Origin: Candidatus Gastranaerophilales bacterium
GTDB taxonomy: Bacteria > Cyanobacteriota > Vampirovibrionia > Gastranaerophilales > Gastranaerophilaceae
NCBI GenBank assembly: GCA_944323595.1
Contig: CALUTF010000011.1
Location: 1-50,701, forward strand
Reading direction: 5' to 3'
DNA length: 50,701 bases
Under the pieces are notes generated by a model. That model saw nothing but the letters and a program-made list of their open reading frames with translations. It searched no databases and had not been told where the DNA came from. Position 1 is the stretch's first letter. Each line of letters opens with the position of its first letter. A program made the position numbers and the translations under genes. Shown in pieces: positions 31,919-50,447 of the stretch.

Positions 31919-32037
31919 TAATTTGAATGTAAAAAGACAGGTTTGTAACAAATTATTAACAAAAAATTATTCAGGTAGCAAAAAAATCTGTTTTCATGTA
32001 TTAATGTGTATGCATAAATAAAAAATTGGAGTCCAAA

Positions 32038-32757
32038 ATGTTAACAATCCAACCACAAGTTACAAATTCAGTTAAATTATCCCCTGCATTCGGTCAAAGA
32101 CCTGAACCAAGATATCAAGAAATTGCGGAAGACGTAGATTATGTTGATCTTTCAGATATTAAACCCGCAGATGATGACGACGATGAAGCGAAAGGTACAA
32201 GAGCTTTCTGGGAAGAACAAAAAAGACAATTTGATGAAGCTGCAAATGATATTGCATTACCAAAACCGGTAAGAAAAGGTGCTAAAATATTTGCGATAGT
32301 TTCAGAAGCTGCAATTGATGCAATTGCTGTATTTTGTACCGGAAAAATGGTAATTGGCGGTGCTCAAAAAGCCTTGAAGTCACCAAAAGTTAAAAATGTT
32401 CTTACAGGCGGCAAAGCTGTTCGCGGGGCAATGCATACTTTTGCCTCAGGTATTTCTAACGGAGCGTCTTCTTTAGGTCGTAGAATTGCTAAAACCGATT
32501 CATATAAAGCTGTTGAAACTTTCTTAACAACAAATAAATATGCAAAACCTGTTACAGAAGGACTTAAAGCTGCAGCAGATGTTGTTTCTGAAAAATTCGG
32601 CGCATTACGAAAAACAGTTTCTGCTATTACCGCAAAACAATATAACAATGCAATATCCGGCACAATTGCAACAGGTGCAGGTATTGCAGGTGCTATTGAT
32701 GAAACTGATAAATATATCAAAGCTCAAAGAGAAGAAGAAATTCAGGAGGCAGCCTAA
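32038..32757 (+). CDS. Lineage-type protein with N-terminal AFGQ motif
   Basis: 239 residues from ATG 32038; TTGGAG just upstream serves as ribosome binding site, and the in-frame TTG at 32026 is part of it. The N-terminus (LTIQPQVTNSVKLSPAFGQR) carries an 'xxAFGQ' motif shared in form with the next gene and with the gene at 39435. After an acidic region (DVDYVDLSDIKPADDDDDE) come long alpha-helical segments, including a Gly/Ala-rich hydrophobic one near the C-terminus (SGTIATGAGIAGAI). Not recognised. Stop overlaps the next start (TAATG). Confidence 0.65.
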   Translation: MLTIQPQVTNSVKLSPAFGQRPEPRYQEIAEDVDYVDLSDIKPADDDDDEAKGTRAFWEEQKRQFDEAANDIALPKPVRKGAKIFAIVSEAAIDAIAVFCTGKMVIGGAQKALKSPKVKNVLTGGKAVRGAMHTFASGISNGASSLGRRIAKTDSYKAVETFLTTNKYAKPVTEGLKAAADVVSEKFGALRKTVSAITAKQYNNAISGTIATGAGIAGAIDETDKYIKAQREEEIQEAA

Positions 32758-33227
32758 TGGTATCAATTGCTCCTGTAAGTTTCGGTCAAAGTTTTGAGGG
32801 TTCTGCAACTCGGGCAGATCGCAGAGAAAAGGTTGAAGATGCAACCTCCAAAACCGGTGCTGCTGTTGCAGGTGGTGCTGCAGTTAAAAAAAGCATCTGG
32901 AAACAATTCAACTCAACATCCAAAATCGGACAGTTATCTCAGGAAGCACAAACTGCAATCAGAACTACTGCACAGGTTACGGACAAAGCAAATACTTTAT
33001 TCGGTGCATTCAAAAATAATGTCACAAGATTTAAAAATATAGCACTTGATTTTGCTGCAGGATTTAAATCTACACCTATAATTAAAAATGTACTGGAAAG
33101 TAAAGTTTATAGACGTATGGCAGGCGGTTTTGGCTATACGATGGCGGGCTTTGTATTCCTCAGCGGCGTTTTGAAAGCCGGTTCCGTATACGCTGCAAAA
33201 GCTGCGAATCTATCAAACGCACAGTAA
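32757..33227 (+). CDS. Lineage-type protein with N-terminal SFGQ motif
   Basis: 156 residues, MVSIAPVSFGQSFEGSATRA at the N-terminus. It is coupled to the preceding gene by a TAATG overlap, with AGGAGG inside that gene's end. Helical, basic, with a hydrophobic C-terminal segment (GGFGYTMAGFVFLSGVLKAG) that could be a membrane helix. Its middle (SKIGQLSQEAQTAI) has no known match that I can see. The pair probably forms one complex. Confidence 0.65.
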   Translation: MVSIAPVSFGQSFEGSATRADRREKVEDATSKTGAAVAGGAAVKKSIWKQFNSTSKIGQLSQEAQTAIRTTAQVTDKANTLFGAFKNNVTRFKNIALDFAAGFKSTPIIKNVLESKVYRRMAGGFGYTMAGFVFLSGVLKAGSVYAAKAANLSNAQ

Positions 33228-37918: not shown

Positions 37919-39438
37919 AAAAGTTTTGGTCTGTATTTTTAGTTTTTATAATGGCATTTTCTGTCCGTGTGTTTTTTATTCACCAGAAATCCGGTTTGCA
38001 TGTCGATGAAGCTCTTGCTTATGTGATTTCATCGGGCAATAATTACGGCTGGACCAATAACTTTTTTGTAAATACCGAATATACCGGCTCTGAGATTGTG
38101 AATTTAACTATAGGGAACCCTCCCTCAGTTAAGGATGCTATCAAAGATGTTGCCTCAATGTATGTTGATAATCGTGATCATCCTTTGACTAATTTGTACT
38201 ATTCTGCGCTGAGACTTTCTTCCTGCGGAGCGGAGGATTACGGGTTGAATAGTTTAATCAACCGCGGCTGTGCATTGAACCTGCTGTTTTTCTGTATATC
38301 TTTTTGCTATTTCTTTAAGCTGCTTCAGGTTTTGTTTAAGGAGGAAGATAAACAGAAATATATCCCGTTTGCGCTCTTGATTGCTTATATGAATACCGGT
38401 GCAATTTCAAATACGCTGTTTTTGCGTCCGTATCAGCTTCAGGAAACAATGTGCGTTGTTATGACGTACATATTTGTGCTTTTTTATAATGATATTAAGG
38501 AAAATAAATTTAATTTACACCCTAAAAAGTTTATACTTACAGCTTTTGTAATGTCACTGGTTACATTATCAGGATATTTCAGTTTGATTTACGAGGGGTT
38601 ACTGGGGCTGGTGCTGCTTGCGATTTGTTTTAAACATAAGGCATACAAAGCTGCGGGTAGTCTTGTTGGGCTTTTTGTTTTAAATTTAATTTTTGCTAAT
38701 TTATTATATCTCGGCTTTATCCTTGGATTTACTTCATACAGAGCTGCTGATGTCTATAGTGCGGGTGTTGATTTTATTTCTAATCTAAAACTTTCCGCGA
38801 GCCGGATTATAGTTCTTTTTACACATTATTTGTTTTATCCTGTTGTTTTGATTGCGGCTTTTATTTCTGCGTTTTTTGCAAAGAAAAAAGAGCGGAATAA
38901 TTTACTATGGATTATTGTACTCTGTGCATTTGTCTGGAGTGCGGTTGTTATGTATCTCGCTCCGTATAAAATTTTGAGATATATTGTTCCTGTTTTTCCT
39001 TTATTGAGTTTAGTGCTGGCGGATTTTGTTCAGAAAATTAATTTCAAAGCTGTTTATTTTTATTCTTTTTTATATCTGTGGGCTGCAATTTTTGCATCAA
39101 GTTTGGATTACGGCGCACCCAGACCAGAAAAAATTATACCGTTTTCAGCCCCTGTTGAAAATGTTTTCAGGCGGACAGATGAACAGTTCGCTTACCGGTA
39201 TAAGCCTGATTTGCCGGTGTTTATCAGTGAAGCAGAACCATGGACAGCGACAAATTTGTTCACTTATGTAAATCCATCGCAAAAATATAAATTTGTCGAT
39301 TTTTCGTTCTTTGAACAAAAATTATACCCGAAAAATAGTTTTATAATCTACCCGAAAGAAAAATCTCTTCCGGAAGAAGAGACTTTTCTTAAACTTGATT
39401 GCGGTTTGTATTATAAATGTTTTGAAATAACTGACTAA
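37915..39438 (+). CDS. GT-C family membrane glycosyltransferase (ArnT/PMT-like)
   Basis: 507 residues with about ten membrane helices. After the first helix comes GLHVDEALAYVISSG, with the acidic DE pair in the first external loop where GT-C enzymes hold their catalytic Asp. A C-terminal soluble part (about 400-507) is periplasmic. Such enzymes use polyprenyl-phosphate sugars as donors, which fits the preceding DPM1-like gene (ATGA overlap). Acceptor could be lipid A, a protein or another glycan. The stop overlaps the convergent small gene by four bases. Confidence 0.75.
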   Translation: MKKFWSVFLVFIMAFSVRVFFIHQKSGLHVDEALAYVISSGNNYGWTNNFFVNTEYTGSEIVNLTIGNPPSVKDAIKDVASMYVDNRDHPLTNLYYSALRLSSCGAEDYGLNSLINRGCALNLLFFCISFCYFFKLLQVLFKEEDKQKYIPFALLIAYMNTGAISNTLFLRPYQLQETMCVVMTYIFVLFYNDIKENKFNLHPKKFILTAFVMSLVTLSGYFSLIYEGLLGLVLLAICFKHKAYKAAGSLVGLFVLNLIFANLLYLGFILGFTSYRAADVYSAGVDFISNLKLSASRIIVLFTHYLFYPVVLIAAFISAFFAKKKERNNLLWIIVLCAFVWSAVVMYLAPYKILRYIVPVFPLLSLVLADFVQKINFKAVYFYSFLYLWAAIFASSLDYGAPRPEKIIPFSAPVENVFRRTDEQFAYRYKPDLPVFISEAEPWTATNLFTYVNPSQKYKFVDFSFFEQKLYPKNSFIIYPKEKSLPEEETFLKLDCGLYYKCFEITD

Positions 39439-39776
39439 GCCTTTGTGGTTTCAGATGTTTTATTGTCAGCTTTAGCTTTTCTTGTATGGTTGATTATTGC
39501 ATCCGGAATAGAGCCTAAGCCTCTTCCGATAAGAGTTATTGCTGCAACTCCTGCGGCAAGTATTCCGTATGTTGCTGCTACTGCTTTATTTGCTTTTGCT
39601 ATTCTTGCACCGGCCAGAGCTGCCCATAATTGTGCAAACCCTGTAGAGGCAACAACCGTACCGCCTATTAAACCTGCTGCAGTACCTATTCTTTTCCCGG
39701 TATTAGTCTTTTCATAAGTATTGCCCTTTTTCGTTTGGGCTAATCTTCCTGCAAATGAAACACTACTAACTTCCAT
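39435..39776 (-). CDS. Small Gly/Ala-rich protein with N-terminal SFAG motif
   Basis: 113 residues starting MEVSSVSFAGRLAQTKKGNT. Its N-terminus has the same form as the proteins at 32038 and 32757 (short polar lead, V/P-S/A-F-G/A-Q/G). Two hydrophobic Gly/Ala-rich helices follow (IGTAAGLIGGTVVASTGFAQ; YGILAAGVAAITLIG) and a charged tail. GAAAGG precedes ATG. Likely membrane-associated; function unknown. Confidence 0.65.
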   Translation of the reverse strand: MEVSSVSFAGRLAQTKKGNTYEKTNTGKRIGTAAGLIGGTVVASTGFAQLWAALAGARIAKANKAVAATYGILAAGVAAITLIGRGLGSIPDAIINHTRKAKADNKTSETTKA

Positions 39777-39872
39777 TTTCTAAACCTTTCTATTTTTACG
39801 GGTAAATATATTAAGCCCTAAACATAAAATTTTTTGTCTATGTTCAGGTAAAATTTTTACAAAATTTTACAA

Positions 39873-45277: not shown

Positions 45278-46105
45278 ATGGATCAGAATTTTGATTTTAC
45301 ATCTTATAATAATATCAAACGTCTTCCAGCCGAAGAATTGGAAAAATTATGGCATGAGTATTTTGAAGACAAAAATAACAAAGCTTTAAGAGATACTCTT
45401 ATTGTTCAATACATATATTTGATTCGATATGTAGTCGGTCGTGTAAAAGTTACTCTTCCTGCTACCATTTCTATAGAAGATATAGCAGGCTATGGTGTAG
45501 AGGGGCTTATCAATGCTGTCGAAAGATATTCTCCACAGAAAAATACGCGCTTTGAAACTTATGCGCTTATAAGAATCAGAGGTACAATTCTTGATAAAAT
45601 CAGAGCGGAAGATTTTCTGCCAAGAAGTGTGAGAAAGAAGATTAAAGATATTAAAGATGCTCAGGAAACTCTTAAACAGGAATTAGGCAGAACTCCTACA
45701 ACTTCCGAAGTTGCGGAATATCTTGATATGGATGTTGAAAAAATTAATCAGATTTTATCTGAAGATACAACTATGACTTCTATTTATGATAAACGCGGCA
45801 ATGCCGATGACAGTGTCGAAATTATTGATACGATTGAAGATACTCATAAACTTACCCCGCATGAAGAAGTTGAAGAAAAAAATGTTAAAGTTGAACTTGA
45901 AAAGGCTCTTAAAAGACTTCCTGAAAGGGAACGAATTATAATGGTTTTGTATTATCAGGAAAACATGACCTTAAAAGAAATCGGTGCGACTATAAATATG
46001 TCAGAATCCCGCGTCTGCCAGCTTCATGCTCAAGGGATTATGAAGCTGAAAAATATTCTTAGCGAAACAAGAGCATCAAGACTGCGTCAAAGCATTATTG
46101 CCTAG
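45278..46105 (+). CDS. fliA: Flagellar/alternative sigma factor, FliA (sigma28) type
   Basis: About 275 residues from ATG 45278 (TTG 45254 would add eight). Region 2: KALRDTLIVQYIYLIRYVVG and EDIAGYGVEGLINAVERY, then FETYALIRIRGTILDKIRAEDFLPRSVR; region 3: LGRTPTTSEVAEYLDMD; region 4: ALKRLPERERIIMVLYYQENMTLKEIG and SESRVCQLHAQGIMKLK. This is the FliA/WhiG/SigD group, which reads late flagellar promoters, and the rod operon lies 2 kb downstream. No flgM anti-sigma gene is seen. No clear ribosome binding site. Confidence 0.9.
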   Translation: MDQNFDFTSYNNIKRLPAEELEKLWHEYFEDKNNKALRDTLIVQYIYLIRYVVGRVKVTLPATISIEDIAGYGVEGLINAVERYSPQKNTRFETYALIRIRGTILDKIRAEDFLPRSVRKKIKDIKDAQETLKQELGRTPTTSEVAEYLDMDVEKINQILSEDTTMTSIYDKRGNADDSVEIIDTIEDTHKLTPHEEVEEKNVKVELEKALKRLPERERIIMVLYYQENMTLKEIGATINMSESRVCQLHAQGIMKLKNILSETRASRLRQSIIA

Positions 46106-48161: not shown

Positions 48162-48860
48162 ATGAAGATAAACGGCGGAATACGATATGTTGAAAAAGGT
48201 ATAACGGCATCCCTTAGGGCGATGCATGTCCAGACTGAACTTATCGGTATGACAAATGAAAACATAAACGGGTTTGATAAAATAGGTTATCAACGAAAAG
48301 AGCCTGTTGTATCTTCATTGACAGAATTTATAGGTGTTCACGGGCTTTCACAAACGGTTGATGACAAAGTCGGACGGATTGCCCTTTCAGAAAATCCTCT
48401 TGATCTGGCAATTGCAACTAAAGGCTACTTCCAAACCCAGACACCTGATGGTGTAAAATTGACAAGGGATGGTCGTTTTAAGATTGACAAAGAAGGGTAT
48501 CTTCTTACTTTAGAAGACCATAATGTACTTGCCAATACTGGTATGCCGATTAAGCTGCCGTTTGTTCCCGAAAAGCTTTCTGATATAAAAGTCAGTGAAA
48601 ACGGATTGGTCAGCGTCCTGAATCTTGAAAACGGTAAACTGGAAAAAGCCGGCTACATCGGAGTCGTTGATAGCAACGGAATGCTATTGATGGAGCCACA
48701 GGTTAAGCAGGGATACAACGAATATTCAAACGTAGCACTGCAGAATGAATTCATCGGAATGATGCCTATTATCAGAAATTTTGAAGCCAACAGGCAGATT
48801 TTTATGATTCAAAACCAGAATCTGCAAAAAGTAATATCCCAACTCGGCTCAGTATCATAA
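48162..48860 (+). CDS. Flagellar basal-body rod protein, FlgF/FlgG-like
   Basis: 232 residues. The N-terminal rod motif is altered: IGMTNENINGFDKIGYQRKE where others have NN-(I/L)-AN-x-x-T-x-GYK. The middle (NPLDLAIATKGYFQTQTPDG, KLTRDGRFKIDKEGYL) is the typical FlgF/FlgG 'TRDG-F--d--G-L' core, and the C-terminus (IRNFEANRQIFMIQNQNLQK) is the helical assembly tail. First gene of the rod run; AAGAGG precedes ATG. FlgF is the more likely identity because the next gene is nearer FlgG. Confidence 0.85.
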   Translation: MKINGGIRYVEKGITASLRAMHVQTELIGMTNENINGFDKIGYQRKEPVVSSLTEFIGVHGLSQTVDDKVGRIALSENPLDLAIATKGYFQTQTPDGVKLTRDGRFKIDKEGYLLTLEDHNVLANTGMPIKLPFVPEKLSDIKVSENGLVSVLNLENGKLEKAGYIGVVDSNGMLLMEPQVKQGYNEYSNVALQNEFIGMMPIIRNFEANRQIFMIQNQNLQKVISQLGSVS

Positions 48861-48886
48861 TCTTTGAAAAAATGAGGTATTAAATT

Positions 48887-49603
48887 ATGTACAGTATGCA
48901 AGGAATAGTCAGAAGAAGCATAGATAACGCAATCAACCAGTTTGAAAGACTCGGACAGGTTGGTAACAATCTTGCCAACTTTAATACAAGAGGTTACAAG
49001 ACCATAAATTTTGAACAAATGCTTCATGAGGACGGTTATCTGACAGGTGCAGTGAGAACAGATTACAAACAGGGTTCAATTCAGATAACAAGTAATCCTT
49101 ATGATGTTGCGGTTGACGGTGTCGGCTTTATTCCTGTATTCTCTCCGTCAGGCGAAGTCGCATATACACGTGACGGTGCTTTTAAACAGGGGCGTGACGG
49201 CTATCTTGTAACAAACGATGATTGGATTGTCGGCAACGGGATAAAAATTCCTACGAACTGTTATAAGTTTGATATAAAGCCTAACGGTGATGTCATAGCC
49301 TACAGTGCGGTTGATGATGCCAATCCAAAGCTTTTGGGTAATATTCCGCTTGTAAGATTTGAAAATCCGCAGGGGCTGGAACAATATGGCAGAAATAAGC
49401 TTATTCCTACAGAAGAAGCAGGTAAAGCTATTCTGGTAAAAAATCATGACTGTTTCCGCCAAAACAATCTGGAAAACTCAAACACCAGTATTTATAACGG
49501 AGTAACGGATATGTTACGACTGAATGCTTCAATGCTGGCAAGTACAAGAATGATAAAAGTTGTCGATGATATGTACAACAAAGCAATTAACATCAGAGAA
49601 TAA
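48887..49603 (+). CDS. flgG: Flagellar basal-body rod protein FlgG-like
   Basis: 238 residues, a little shorter than FlgG of model bacteria (about 260). Rod motif GNNLANFNTRGYKT is intact; the core reads NPYDVAVDGVGFIPVFSPSG and VAYTRDGAFKQGRDGYLVTN; the C-terminal helix is TDMLRLNASMLASTRMIKVVDDMYNKA (residues about 207-233). Distal rod component. It lies 26 bases after the previous gene and 21 before flgB. Confidence 0.85.
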   Translation: MYSMQGIVRRSIDNAINQFERLGQVGNNLANFNTRGYKTINFEQMLHEDGYLTGAVRTDYKQGSIQITSNPYDVAVDGVGFIPVFSPSGEVAYTRDGAFKQGRDGYLVTNDDWIVGNGIKIPTNCYKFDIKPNGDVIAYSAVDDANPKLLGNIPLVRFENPQGLEQYGRNKLIPTEEAGKAILVKNHDCFRQNNLENSNTSIYNGVTDMLRLNASMLASTRMIKVVDDMYNKAINIRE

Positions 49604-49624
49604 TTTACGGAGGTTTAGAAAAAA

Positions 49625-49972
49625 GTGTTTACGTCATTGGATAATATGGGTAAAGTTACCTTAATGATGGATTTAATATCCCAAAGGCAAAGAGCTCTTG
49701 GGGCTAACCTTGCAAACGTGGATACTCCTGGGTACGTCAGACGTGATATAAATTTCGGGGACTATCTAAACTCTATGAACAGCCCTCTGGAAACTAAACT
49801 TTCAGAAGCTCTCGGGCCGTCCGGCGTAATAGAAGAAAGACGTTATGAAGAAATTGATCCTGCGCAGGAGTTAATGAAAATTCAACAGAACTCTATATTA
49901 TACACAATGGCTACACGCAGAATGTCAAACATCGTAACAGAGATGAAAACTGTAATAAACGTAGGTAAATAA
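49625..49972 (+). CDS. flgB: Flagellar basal-body rod protein FlgB
   Basis: 115 residues from GTG 49625 (GGAGG upstream). Contains the rod signature RALGANLANVDTPGYVRRDINF (in part) and the C-terminal assembly helix LMKIQQNSILYTMATRRMSN. FlgB is the most proximal rod protein. In most genomes flgB and flgC come first, followed by fliE; here they follow two FlgF/G-like genes. Confidence 0.93.
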   Translation: MFTSLDNMGKVTLMMDLISQRQRALGANLANVDTPGYVRRDINFGDYLNSMNSPLETKLSEALGPSGVIEERRYEEIDPAQELMKIQQNSILYTMATRRMSNIVTEMKTVINVGK

Positions 49973-50003
49973 TAAATAGCAAATAATAGACAGGAGCAAA
50001 ACA

Positions 50004-50447
50004 ATGTCAATAATGGAATCAATGAATATCGGATCAAATGCCTTGAAAGCGCACGGGCTTCGTCTTGATATTCACGCAAAGAACATAGCAAACGTAGATA
50101 CTCCGAATTATGTAAGAAGAATTCCTGTATTGAACGCAACAGAAGATATTTCTTTTCATGGCTTAATGAATGCAATGAAAGAGGATGTATTTGGTGTCGG
50201 GACGCTTCCTTACCTGCAGGGTGGAGTTGTATTCAATGGCTGTGTAGAAGATCCGACATTGGGTGATAAAATTTATAAACCTGGGCATCCGGATGCAGAT
50301 GCAGAGGGGTATATCAGAGCCTCAAACGTAAATGCGATGGTTGATATGGCAGATGCTATAATGGCACAAAGGGCTTATGAGGCAAACCTTGCGGTAATTA
50401 ACATATCAAAGTCAATGGCACAGCGTGCCCTTGAAATAGGTAAATAG
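50004..50447 (+). CDS. flgC: Flagellar basal-body rod protein FlgC
   Basis: 147 residues. Rod motif HAKNIANVDTPNYVRRIPVL, the 'GHPDADAEGYIRASNVNAMV' segment and the tail AYEANLAVINISKSMAQRALEIGK are diagnostic of FlgC. CAGGAG lies before ATG. No fliE follows: a terminator comes directly after, so export and MS-ring genes must be elsewhere. Confidence 0.95.
   Translation: MSIMESMNIGSNALKAHGLRLDIHAKNIANVDTPNYVRRIPVLNATEDISFHGLMNAMKEDVFGVGTLPYLQGGVVFNGCVEDPTLGDKIYKPGHPDADAEGYIRASNVNAMVDMADAIMAQRAYEANLAVINISKSMAQRALEIGK

What the first reader, a model, noticed from the sequence alone, without database searches (positions are those of the whole stretch)
32038..33227. Two coupled proteins with a short N-terminal 'AFGQ/SFGQ' tag
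The two proteins start LTIQPQVTNSVKLSPAFGQ and MVSIAPVSFGQS. A third at 39435-39776 starts MEVSSVSFAGR. They are otherwise dissimilar, mostly helical and Gly/Ala-rich. A short conserved N-terminal peptide on unrelated proteins is the hallmark of a targeting or encapsulation tag. None is a known signal peptide.
Basis: partly seen in the sequence, partly recalled or inferred. Interest (0 to 1): 0.62.

Follow-up and report, generated by a model that had tools for sequence, protein, structure and literature searches.

The report
Tagged protein regulon in gut Gastranaerophilales
Dozens of otherwise unrelated proteins of a non-photosynthetic gut relative of cyanobacteria begin with the same kind of short peptide and many are switched on by the same promoter, which looks like a previously undescribed signal that sends a set of proteins to one place, perhaps out of the cell.

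Summary
The three proteins and their N-termini are real, and P1/P2 overlap by one base (TAATG). The broader tag is: M-x-I/V, an Asn/Ser/Thr/Gln/Pro-rich linker, then [S/N/A/T]-F-[T/G]-[G/A/S]. In the first 55 residues it occurs in 39 of 919 own ORFs against 12.3±3.4 in shuffles. It is also enriched in other Gastranaerophilaceae, not in outgroups. Tagged ORFs share a promoter, TAGCAA-N17-TTTWWW: TAGCAAA lies upstream of 21/45 tagged against 19/874 untagged ORFs. P1 carries this site. A strict pattern occurs 25 times in this genome (control 1) and in 59 of 60 family members, but in 2 of 17 outer-class genomes. Of 41 unseen promoter-defined ORFs, 19 carry a loose tag against 247/1646 background. 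Tagged proteins include ATPase, helicase, methyltransferase, NDK and 5'-nucleotidase, without Sec signals. No microcompartment or classical encapsulin shell was found. The genome has flagellar-type export genes but no flagellin. Best guess: an N-terminal export or sorting signal of a dedicated regulon, possibly for that apparatus. The tag-promoter link is well supported; the destination is inferred.

The parts
31976..32004 (+). Promoter-like element of the regulon upstream of P1: TAGCAA (31976-31981), 17-base spacer, TATTAA (31999-32004); 62 bases before the P1 start
   Evidence: Leave-one-out weight-matrix score 20.7; 15 of 45 tagged and 7 of 874 untagged ORFs reach 20; sequence. It misses the strict pattern by two bases.
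32038..32757 (+). P1, 239 aa, tagged protein of unknown family; one hydrophobic segment near residue 81
   Evidence: ORF; matches in 13 of 99 genomes, own included, none outside the family f1; distant relatives keep the N-terminal layout; hydrophobicity
32038..32097 (+). N-terminal tag of P1 (MLTIQPQVTNSVKLSPAFGQ)
32757..33227 (+). P2, 156 aa, tagged; start overlaps the P1 stop (TAATG)
   Evidence: ORF; overlap; matches in 21 of 99 genomes, own included, all in f1
32757..32789 (+). N-terminal tag of P2 (MVSIAPVSFGQ)
39435..39776 (-). P3, 113 aa, tagged; hydrophobic stretches from about residues 30 and 65; first ~40 residues shared with tagged paralogues
   Evidence: ORF; matches in 14 of 99 genomes, own included; paralogue L098:15363; hydrophobicity
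39744..39776 (-). N-terminal tag of P3 (MEVSSVSFAGR)
39808..39839 (-). Weak copy of the promoter element upstream of P3 (AGACAAAAAATTTTATGTTTAGGGCTTAATAT)
   Evidence: Score 6.7; 44 of 874 untagged ORFs reach 5, so weak
48162..50447 (+). Four flagellar rod-type genes (flgF-, flgG-, flgB-, flgC-like), untagged: part of the flagellin-less type III apparatus proposed as the exporter
   Evidence: Pfam; 41-66% identity to the cluster of an order-level relative

Best explanation
P1, P2 and P3 belong to a large set of proteins in Gastranaerophilaceae, perhaps about 100 per genome by extrapolation from 45 in 0.90 Mb, that share an N-terminal peptide: M-x-I/V, a polar linker poor in acidic residues, then [polar]-F-[T/G/K/S/N/Q]-[G/A/S]. 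Many are transcribed from a dedicated promoter (TAGCAA-N17-TTTWWW). The peptide most likely works as a Sec-independent N-terminal sorting or export signal. The best candidate exporter is the flagellar-type type III apparatus that this lineage keeps without flagellin, so the tagged proteins would be its secreted substrates. Shown: the enrichment of the tag, its peptide-level nature, the promoter and its spacing, their co-occurrence, the restriction to this family and a few nearby ones, the absence of Sec signals, and the presence of export genes. Inferred: that the peptide is a signal, that its carriers leave the cytoplasm, and that type III is the route. I put the first layer (a real tag with a real regulon) at about 0.9 and the full mechanism at about 0.4.
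For: Tag enrichment against shuffles and internal windows. Distant relatives of P1-P3 keep the tag while the linker varies. Varied synonymous codons at the tag (F: 26 TTT, 5 TTC; T: 6 ACA, 2 ACC, 2 ACT, 1 ACG; G and S likewise), so the peptide and not the DNA appears selected. Shared promoter: TAGCAAA in 21/45 tagged against 19/874 untagged ORFs; unselected positions at fixed spacing, T 20/21 twice and TTT 18, 18, 21 of 21; leave-one-out score >=11 in 27/45 tagged against 18/874 untagged. Strict pattern in 59 of 60 f1 genomes, 14 of 22 other order members at low counts, 2 of 17 outer-class genomes. Unseen promoter-defined ORFs: loose tag in 19 of 41 against 247 of 1646, p=2.8e-6; 24 of 41 by eye (8 of 9 own, 10 of 22 G027, 6 of 10 G025). 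Only 2 of 41 have a Sec-like stretch, against 215 of 874 untagged own ORFs. Export apparatus: FlhA kind in 94 of 99 genomes, FlhB, FliH and rod proteins, flagellin not found. Close to flhB, a 5'-nucleotidase-like protein and a papain-fold protein of the tagged set match in 70 and 67 of 80 loci. Type III-like composition in held-out promoter genes: no acidic residue in the first 12 in 20/35 against 163/591, p=3.6e-4.
Against: The apparatus genes themselves lack the promoter: flhA, flhB, fliH, flgF-like and FlgE-like all score below 0. The apparatus is far wider than the tag, and so is the sigma factor linked to flhB. The gate recognition motif is not enriched: hydrophobic residue at F+4 in 16/43, background 0.308. 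The Ser-rich rule is not met in held-out genes (5/35 against 72/591). Many tagged proteins are cytosol-type ATP- or SAM-using enzymes. G047 lacks a full FlhA match yet has FlhB and tags, perhaps an assembly gap but untested. The strict tag motif is only 4/41 (p=0.06) in the promoter-defined set. In five other genomes the automatic tag rule and the site did not co-occur (1 of 23 against 22 of 703). FliI and FliF were not found in the 45% of this genome that I held; FliPQR were not sought.
Confidence: 0.4

Rival explanations
1. The tag sends proteins to an intracellular place (a membrane domain, condensate or unknown compartment) through a receptor that binds F-x-[G/A/S].
For: Many carriers are cytosol-type enzymes: AAA ATPase, DEAD/DSHCT helicase, CheR-type methyltransferases, GNAT, NDK. 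The tagged AAA ATPase and helicase have paralogues not in the tagged set in the same genome, as expected for relocated second copies. The tag was not enriched in related genomes that have the export apparatus.
Against: No BMC shell or classical encapsulin in 59 genomes each. A 5'-nucleotidase and a papain-fold protein, types that are often exported, are also in the set. No receptor was found or sought.
Confidence: 0.3
2. The tag is an export signal for a route other than type III.
For: No Sec-like stretch in tagged proteins (0/45, partly by selection) and in only 2/41 promoter-defined ones. The structural type III genes are not in the regulon.
Against: No other exporter was sought; two genes of the tagged set lie close to flhB in most loci.
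Confidence: 0.18
3. The N-terminal peptide is a by-product of expression control: early codons of a co-regulated set tuned for translation, with no sorting role.
For: Shared promoter; AT-rich early codons such as AAA, ATT and AAT would favour M-K-I-N.
Against: The F-[T/G]-[G/A/S] core is placed variably and uses varied synonymous codons; distant relatives keep it at the peptide level.
Confidence: 0.08
4. Chance resemblance of three N-termini.
Against: Wide-motif enrichment and the promoter link.
Confidence: 0.04

Closest known systems
HrpL regulon and type III effectors of Pseudomonas syringae (abstract of PMC3338616 read; PMC4149516 abstract start seen in a search listing)
   Same: A dedicated promoter in front of many unrelated proteins that share a loose N-terminal export pattern; aliphatic residue at position 3 or 4 and few acids in the first 12 residues are enriched here too.
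   Different: Here there is a conserved F-x-[G/A/S] core; the structural type III genes lack the promoter; Ser enrichment was not met in held-out genes; no link to HrpL was shown.
Export signals of early flagellar subunits: N-terminal hydrophobic signal plus gate recognition motif (PMC8983047, passages seen)
   Same: Unchaperoned N-terminal bipartite layout: a small hydrophobic residue near the start, then a motif further in.
   Different: The spacing is mostly shorter than the 26 or more residues reported there; hydrophobic F+4 not enriched.
Flagellum basal bodies of Buchnera (PMC8109811, abstract start seen in a search listing)
   Same: Basal body and export genes kept and expressed in a symbiont with a small genome.
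   Different: No tagged regulon is mentioned in what I saw; here the lineage is a gut relative of cyanobacteria.
Encapsulin and microcompartment cargo peptides (recalled)
   Same: Short terminal peptide on unrelated enzymes.
   Different: No PF00936 or PF04454 shell in 59 genomes; the tag region is polar and, in the one family modelled, disordered.

Membership tests
Type III export substrates | A type III export apparatus in the same genome | tested here: met
   FlhA, FlhB, FliH and rod genes; FliI and FliF not found in the part held, FliPQR not sought
Type III export substrates | No Sec signal peptide | tested here: met
   Held-out promoter-defined 2 of 41 with a Sec-like stretch against 215 of 874 untagged own ORFs; curated tagged 0 of 45, but the curation itself favoured this
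Type III export substrates | P. syringae composition rules (Ser >10% in 50, aliphatic or Pro at 3/4, no acid in first 12) | tested here: inconclusive
   Held-out: no acid 20/35 against 163/591; position 3/4 24/35 against 307/591; Ser 5/35 against 72/591; the position test also allowed Ala
Type III export substrates | Secretion depends on the apparatus | not testable with these tools
   Needs a bench test
Early flagellar substrates | Gate recognition motif, F-x-x-x-hydrophobic (pattern recalled) | tested here: not met
   16 of 43 against a background of 0.308
HrpL-like regulon | Structural type III genes under the same promoter | tested here: not met
   flhA, flhB, fliH, flgF-like, FlgE-like score below 0
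BMC cargo | BMC shell protein in the genome | tested here: not met
   PF00936 in 0 of 59 genomes, control rings
Encapsulin cargo | Encapsulin shell in the genome | tested here: not met
   PF04454 in 0 of 59 genomes, control rings; other encapsulin families not tested
Papain-superfamily protease (tagged-set protein close to flhB) | Papain-type fold with Cys-His | tested here: inconclusive
   Invariant C167 and H369 in 49 sequences; Z 10.1, rmsd 4.3, 181 aligned to bleomycin hydrolase, but no Foldseek match at E <= 0.001

The most novel reading that the evidence does not exclude
A gut lineage related to cyanobacteria has turned a flagellum without a filament into a protein-delivery machine with about a hundred co-regulated substrates marked by a conserved N-terminal address peptide, delivering enzymes (protease, nucleotidase, kinase, methyltransferases, helicase) to neighbouring or host cells.
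Probability: 0.2. Interest if true: 0.93.

Novelty: new variant of a known kind. Interest (0 to 1): 0.74.

Why it matters
Gastranaerophilales are gut bacteria known mostly from assembled genomes, whose incomplete flagellar gene sets have been read as not encoding a functional flagellum (PMC4040986, passages). A tag plus promoter gives a sequence-only way to list a large co-regulated protein set in them, and makes it testable whether the leftover flagellar genes form a secretion system. My searches of the held library listed no paper whose title or abstract start describes such a tag, promoter or secreted set; most of the papers listed were not read, and most subscription papers are not held.

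Tried and rejected
A tripeptide count at N-termini was swamped by signal peptides. Encapsulation was tested by shell families and not supported. The gate recognition motif was not enriched. The idea that the sigma factor beside flhB drives the regulon is not supported by distribution: it is also in families with few or no promoter copies. G047 as a natural FlhA loss was dropped, since FlhB and tags are present and an assembly gap is possible. The fold of P1 from one sequence is useless (mean pLDDT 37.7). A PadR-like hit (L020:8280) was dropped from the tagged set as a false call. The curated set of 45 was chosen by eye; rows of the automatic lists that I did not accept are not in it. The automatic filter asked for few acids, many polar residues and no hydrophobic stretch, so composition figures for that set are biased; the promoter-defined sets were not chosen by tag.

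In tests with the 80 flhB loci many genes are orthologues, so those counts are not independent. In five other genomes the automatic tag rule did not co-occur with the site (1 of 23 tagged against 22 of 703 untagged, p=0.53), although by eye many of the site-bearing genes there look tagged.

Full report
What was checked. P1 and P2 overlap by one base, TAATG. None has a Pfam or NCBIfam match at its cut-off. The window is contig 11 of a 2.05 Mb genome. Relatives of its FlhB are named Candidatus Gastranaerophilales, including Ca. Gastranaerophilus phascolarctosicola and Ca. Scatousia, so the lineage is the non-photosynthetic gut relatives of cyanobacteria. P1, P2 and P3 match in 13, 21 and 14 of 99 genomes, own included, all in the same family. 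Distant relatives, at about 20-55% identity, mostly keep the layout M-x-I/V ... F-[T/G]-x while the linker varies (minus-strand matches were not turned in that call and could not be read there).

Is the tag more than chance? The wider motif [SANT]F[TG][GAS] was first tested on held-out stretches: 11 of 9154 N-terminal against 39 of 102851 other positions, p=0.002. The same test failed in four other genomes with 80 kb each (1 of 7521 against 19 of 81303). With the first 55 residues and within-protein shuffles, the counts are 39 of 919 own ORFs against 12.3, 19 of 726 in five other genomes against 9.3, 41 of 1087 in 80 named loci against 16.2 (many orthologues), and 5 of 427 in outgroups against 6.3. 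Gene starts were called by a simple script of mine, so some starts are wrong.

The promoter. I curated 45 tagged ORFs by eye among 919 and compared 120 bases upstream with the other 874. The most enriched words were TAGCAAA (21 of 45 against 19 of 874) and TAGCAAAA (19 against 12). Aligning the 21 sites shows conserved bases that were not used to find them: T at +13 and +15 (20 of 21 each) and TTT at +23 to +25 (18, 18, 21 of 21), that is TAGCAA, 17 bases, TTTWWW. With each gene's own site left out, 27 of 45 tagged and 18 of 874 untagged ORFs score 11 or more. P1 has a good site 62 bases upstream (20.7), P2 follows it in the same operon, and P3 has only a weak one (6.7). A strict pattern hits 25 times in the genome against 1 for the reversed control. 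It is found in 59 of 60 genomes of the family, 14 of 22 other members of the order at low counts (1-12 per genome; controls 6 in all), and 2 of 17 outer-class genomes.

Turning it round. I fetched 40 regions chosen only by the strict pattern: 9 own places not seen before, and places in two other genera. They give 41 ORFs. By a loose automatic motif 19 of 41 are tagged against 247 of 1646 background ORFs (p=2.8e-6); by the strict motif 4 of 41 against 58 of 1646 (p=0.06). By eye I count 24 of 41 (8 of 9 own, 10 of 22 and 6 of 10 in the other genera). Only 2 of 41 have a Sec-like stretch. Codons at the tag are varied, so selection seems to act on the peptide. Some promoter-bearing genes are untagged and recur between genera: a ribose-phosphate pyrophosphokinase (L089:1421; L276) and a small lipoprotein-like protein beside flhA (L097:13809; L280).

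What the tagged proteins are. Of 32 proteins of the tagged set given to Pfam (one, PadR-like, later dropped), those over a cut-off were AAA ATPase, DEAD/DSHCT helicase, HNH, GNAT, two CheR-type methyltransferases, NDK and a 5'-nucleotidase; most had none. The tagged helicase and AAA ATPase have paralogues outside the tagged set in the same genome (40% over 482 and 35% over 226 residues). Close to flhB, the 5'-nucleotidase-like protein and a ~460-residue protein match in 70 and 67 of 80 loci. The latter has invariant Cys and His. Its model is good except for the first 38 residues, which are disordered. It resembles papain-type proteases (best Z 10.1), although no Foldseek match reaches E 0.001. 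Their N-termini vary and not all carry the F motif.

The apparatus. FlhA-type proteins are in 94 of 99 genomes, in what look like two kinds by score; this genome has the ~730-bit kind. FlhB is present, with FliH and rod-type genes, and flagellin was not found. An order-level relative has FliI, FlhA, FliH, FliF, FliE and rod genes in one cluster. Earlier work read the partial flagellar sets as not encoding a functional flagellum (PMC4040986, passages).

Mechanism. A dedicated promoter, a polar N-terminus with a conserved F-x-[G/A/S] core, no Sec signal, and exported-type enzymes close to flhB fit an N-terminal export or sorting signal; the flagellin-less type III apparatus is the best candidate for the route. 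Against it: its structural genes lack the promoter, it is more widespread than the tag, the gate recognition motif is not enriched, and the type III composition rules are only partly met. I therefore hold the tag and regulon as well supported and the route as a hypothesis.

Noticed in passing
window 45278-46105 (+): A sigma factor of the FliA/WhiG kind by recall, about 2 kb before the rod genes; no flagellin in the genome.
   Followed up: no
L137:11399-12061: A sigma factor directly after flhB, matched in 79 of 80 loci and in most of the order.
   Followed up: partly
window 31946-31981: Two TAACAAA words precede the TAGCAAA site of P1, a run of three near-copies of the -35-like word.
   Followed up: no
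L089:1421-2434 and L276: Ribose-phosphate pyrophosphokinase without tag but with the regulon promoter about 126-130 bases upstream in two genera.
   Followed up: partly
L097:13809-14309 and L280: A lipoprotein-like protein close to flhA with the regulon promoter, also in another genus.
   Followed up: no
many genomes, e.g. G003:C1:68072-69076: Proteins of about 500 residues that match only the C-terminal half of the FlhA family.
   Followed up: no
L098:11625-13773: Neighbouring related genes, two of them tagged with 39% identity over the first ~125 residues, one with a CheR-type methyltransferase domain.
   Followed up: no
L086:15737-18423: Two ORFs that look like phage structural proteins (by recall only).
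   Followed up: no
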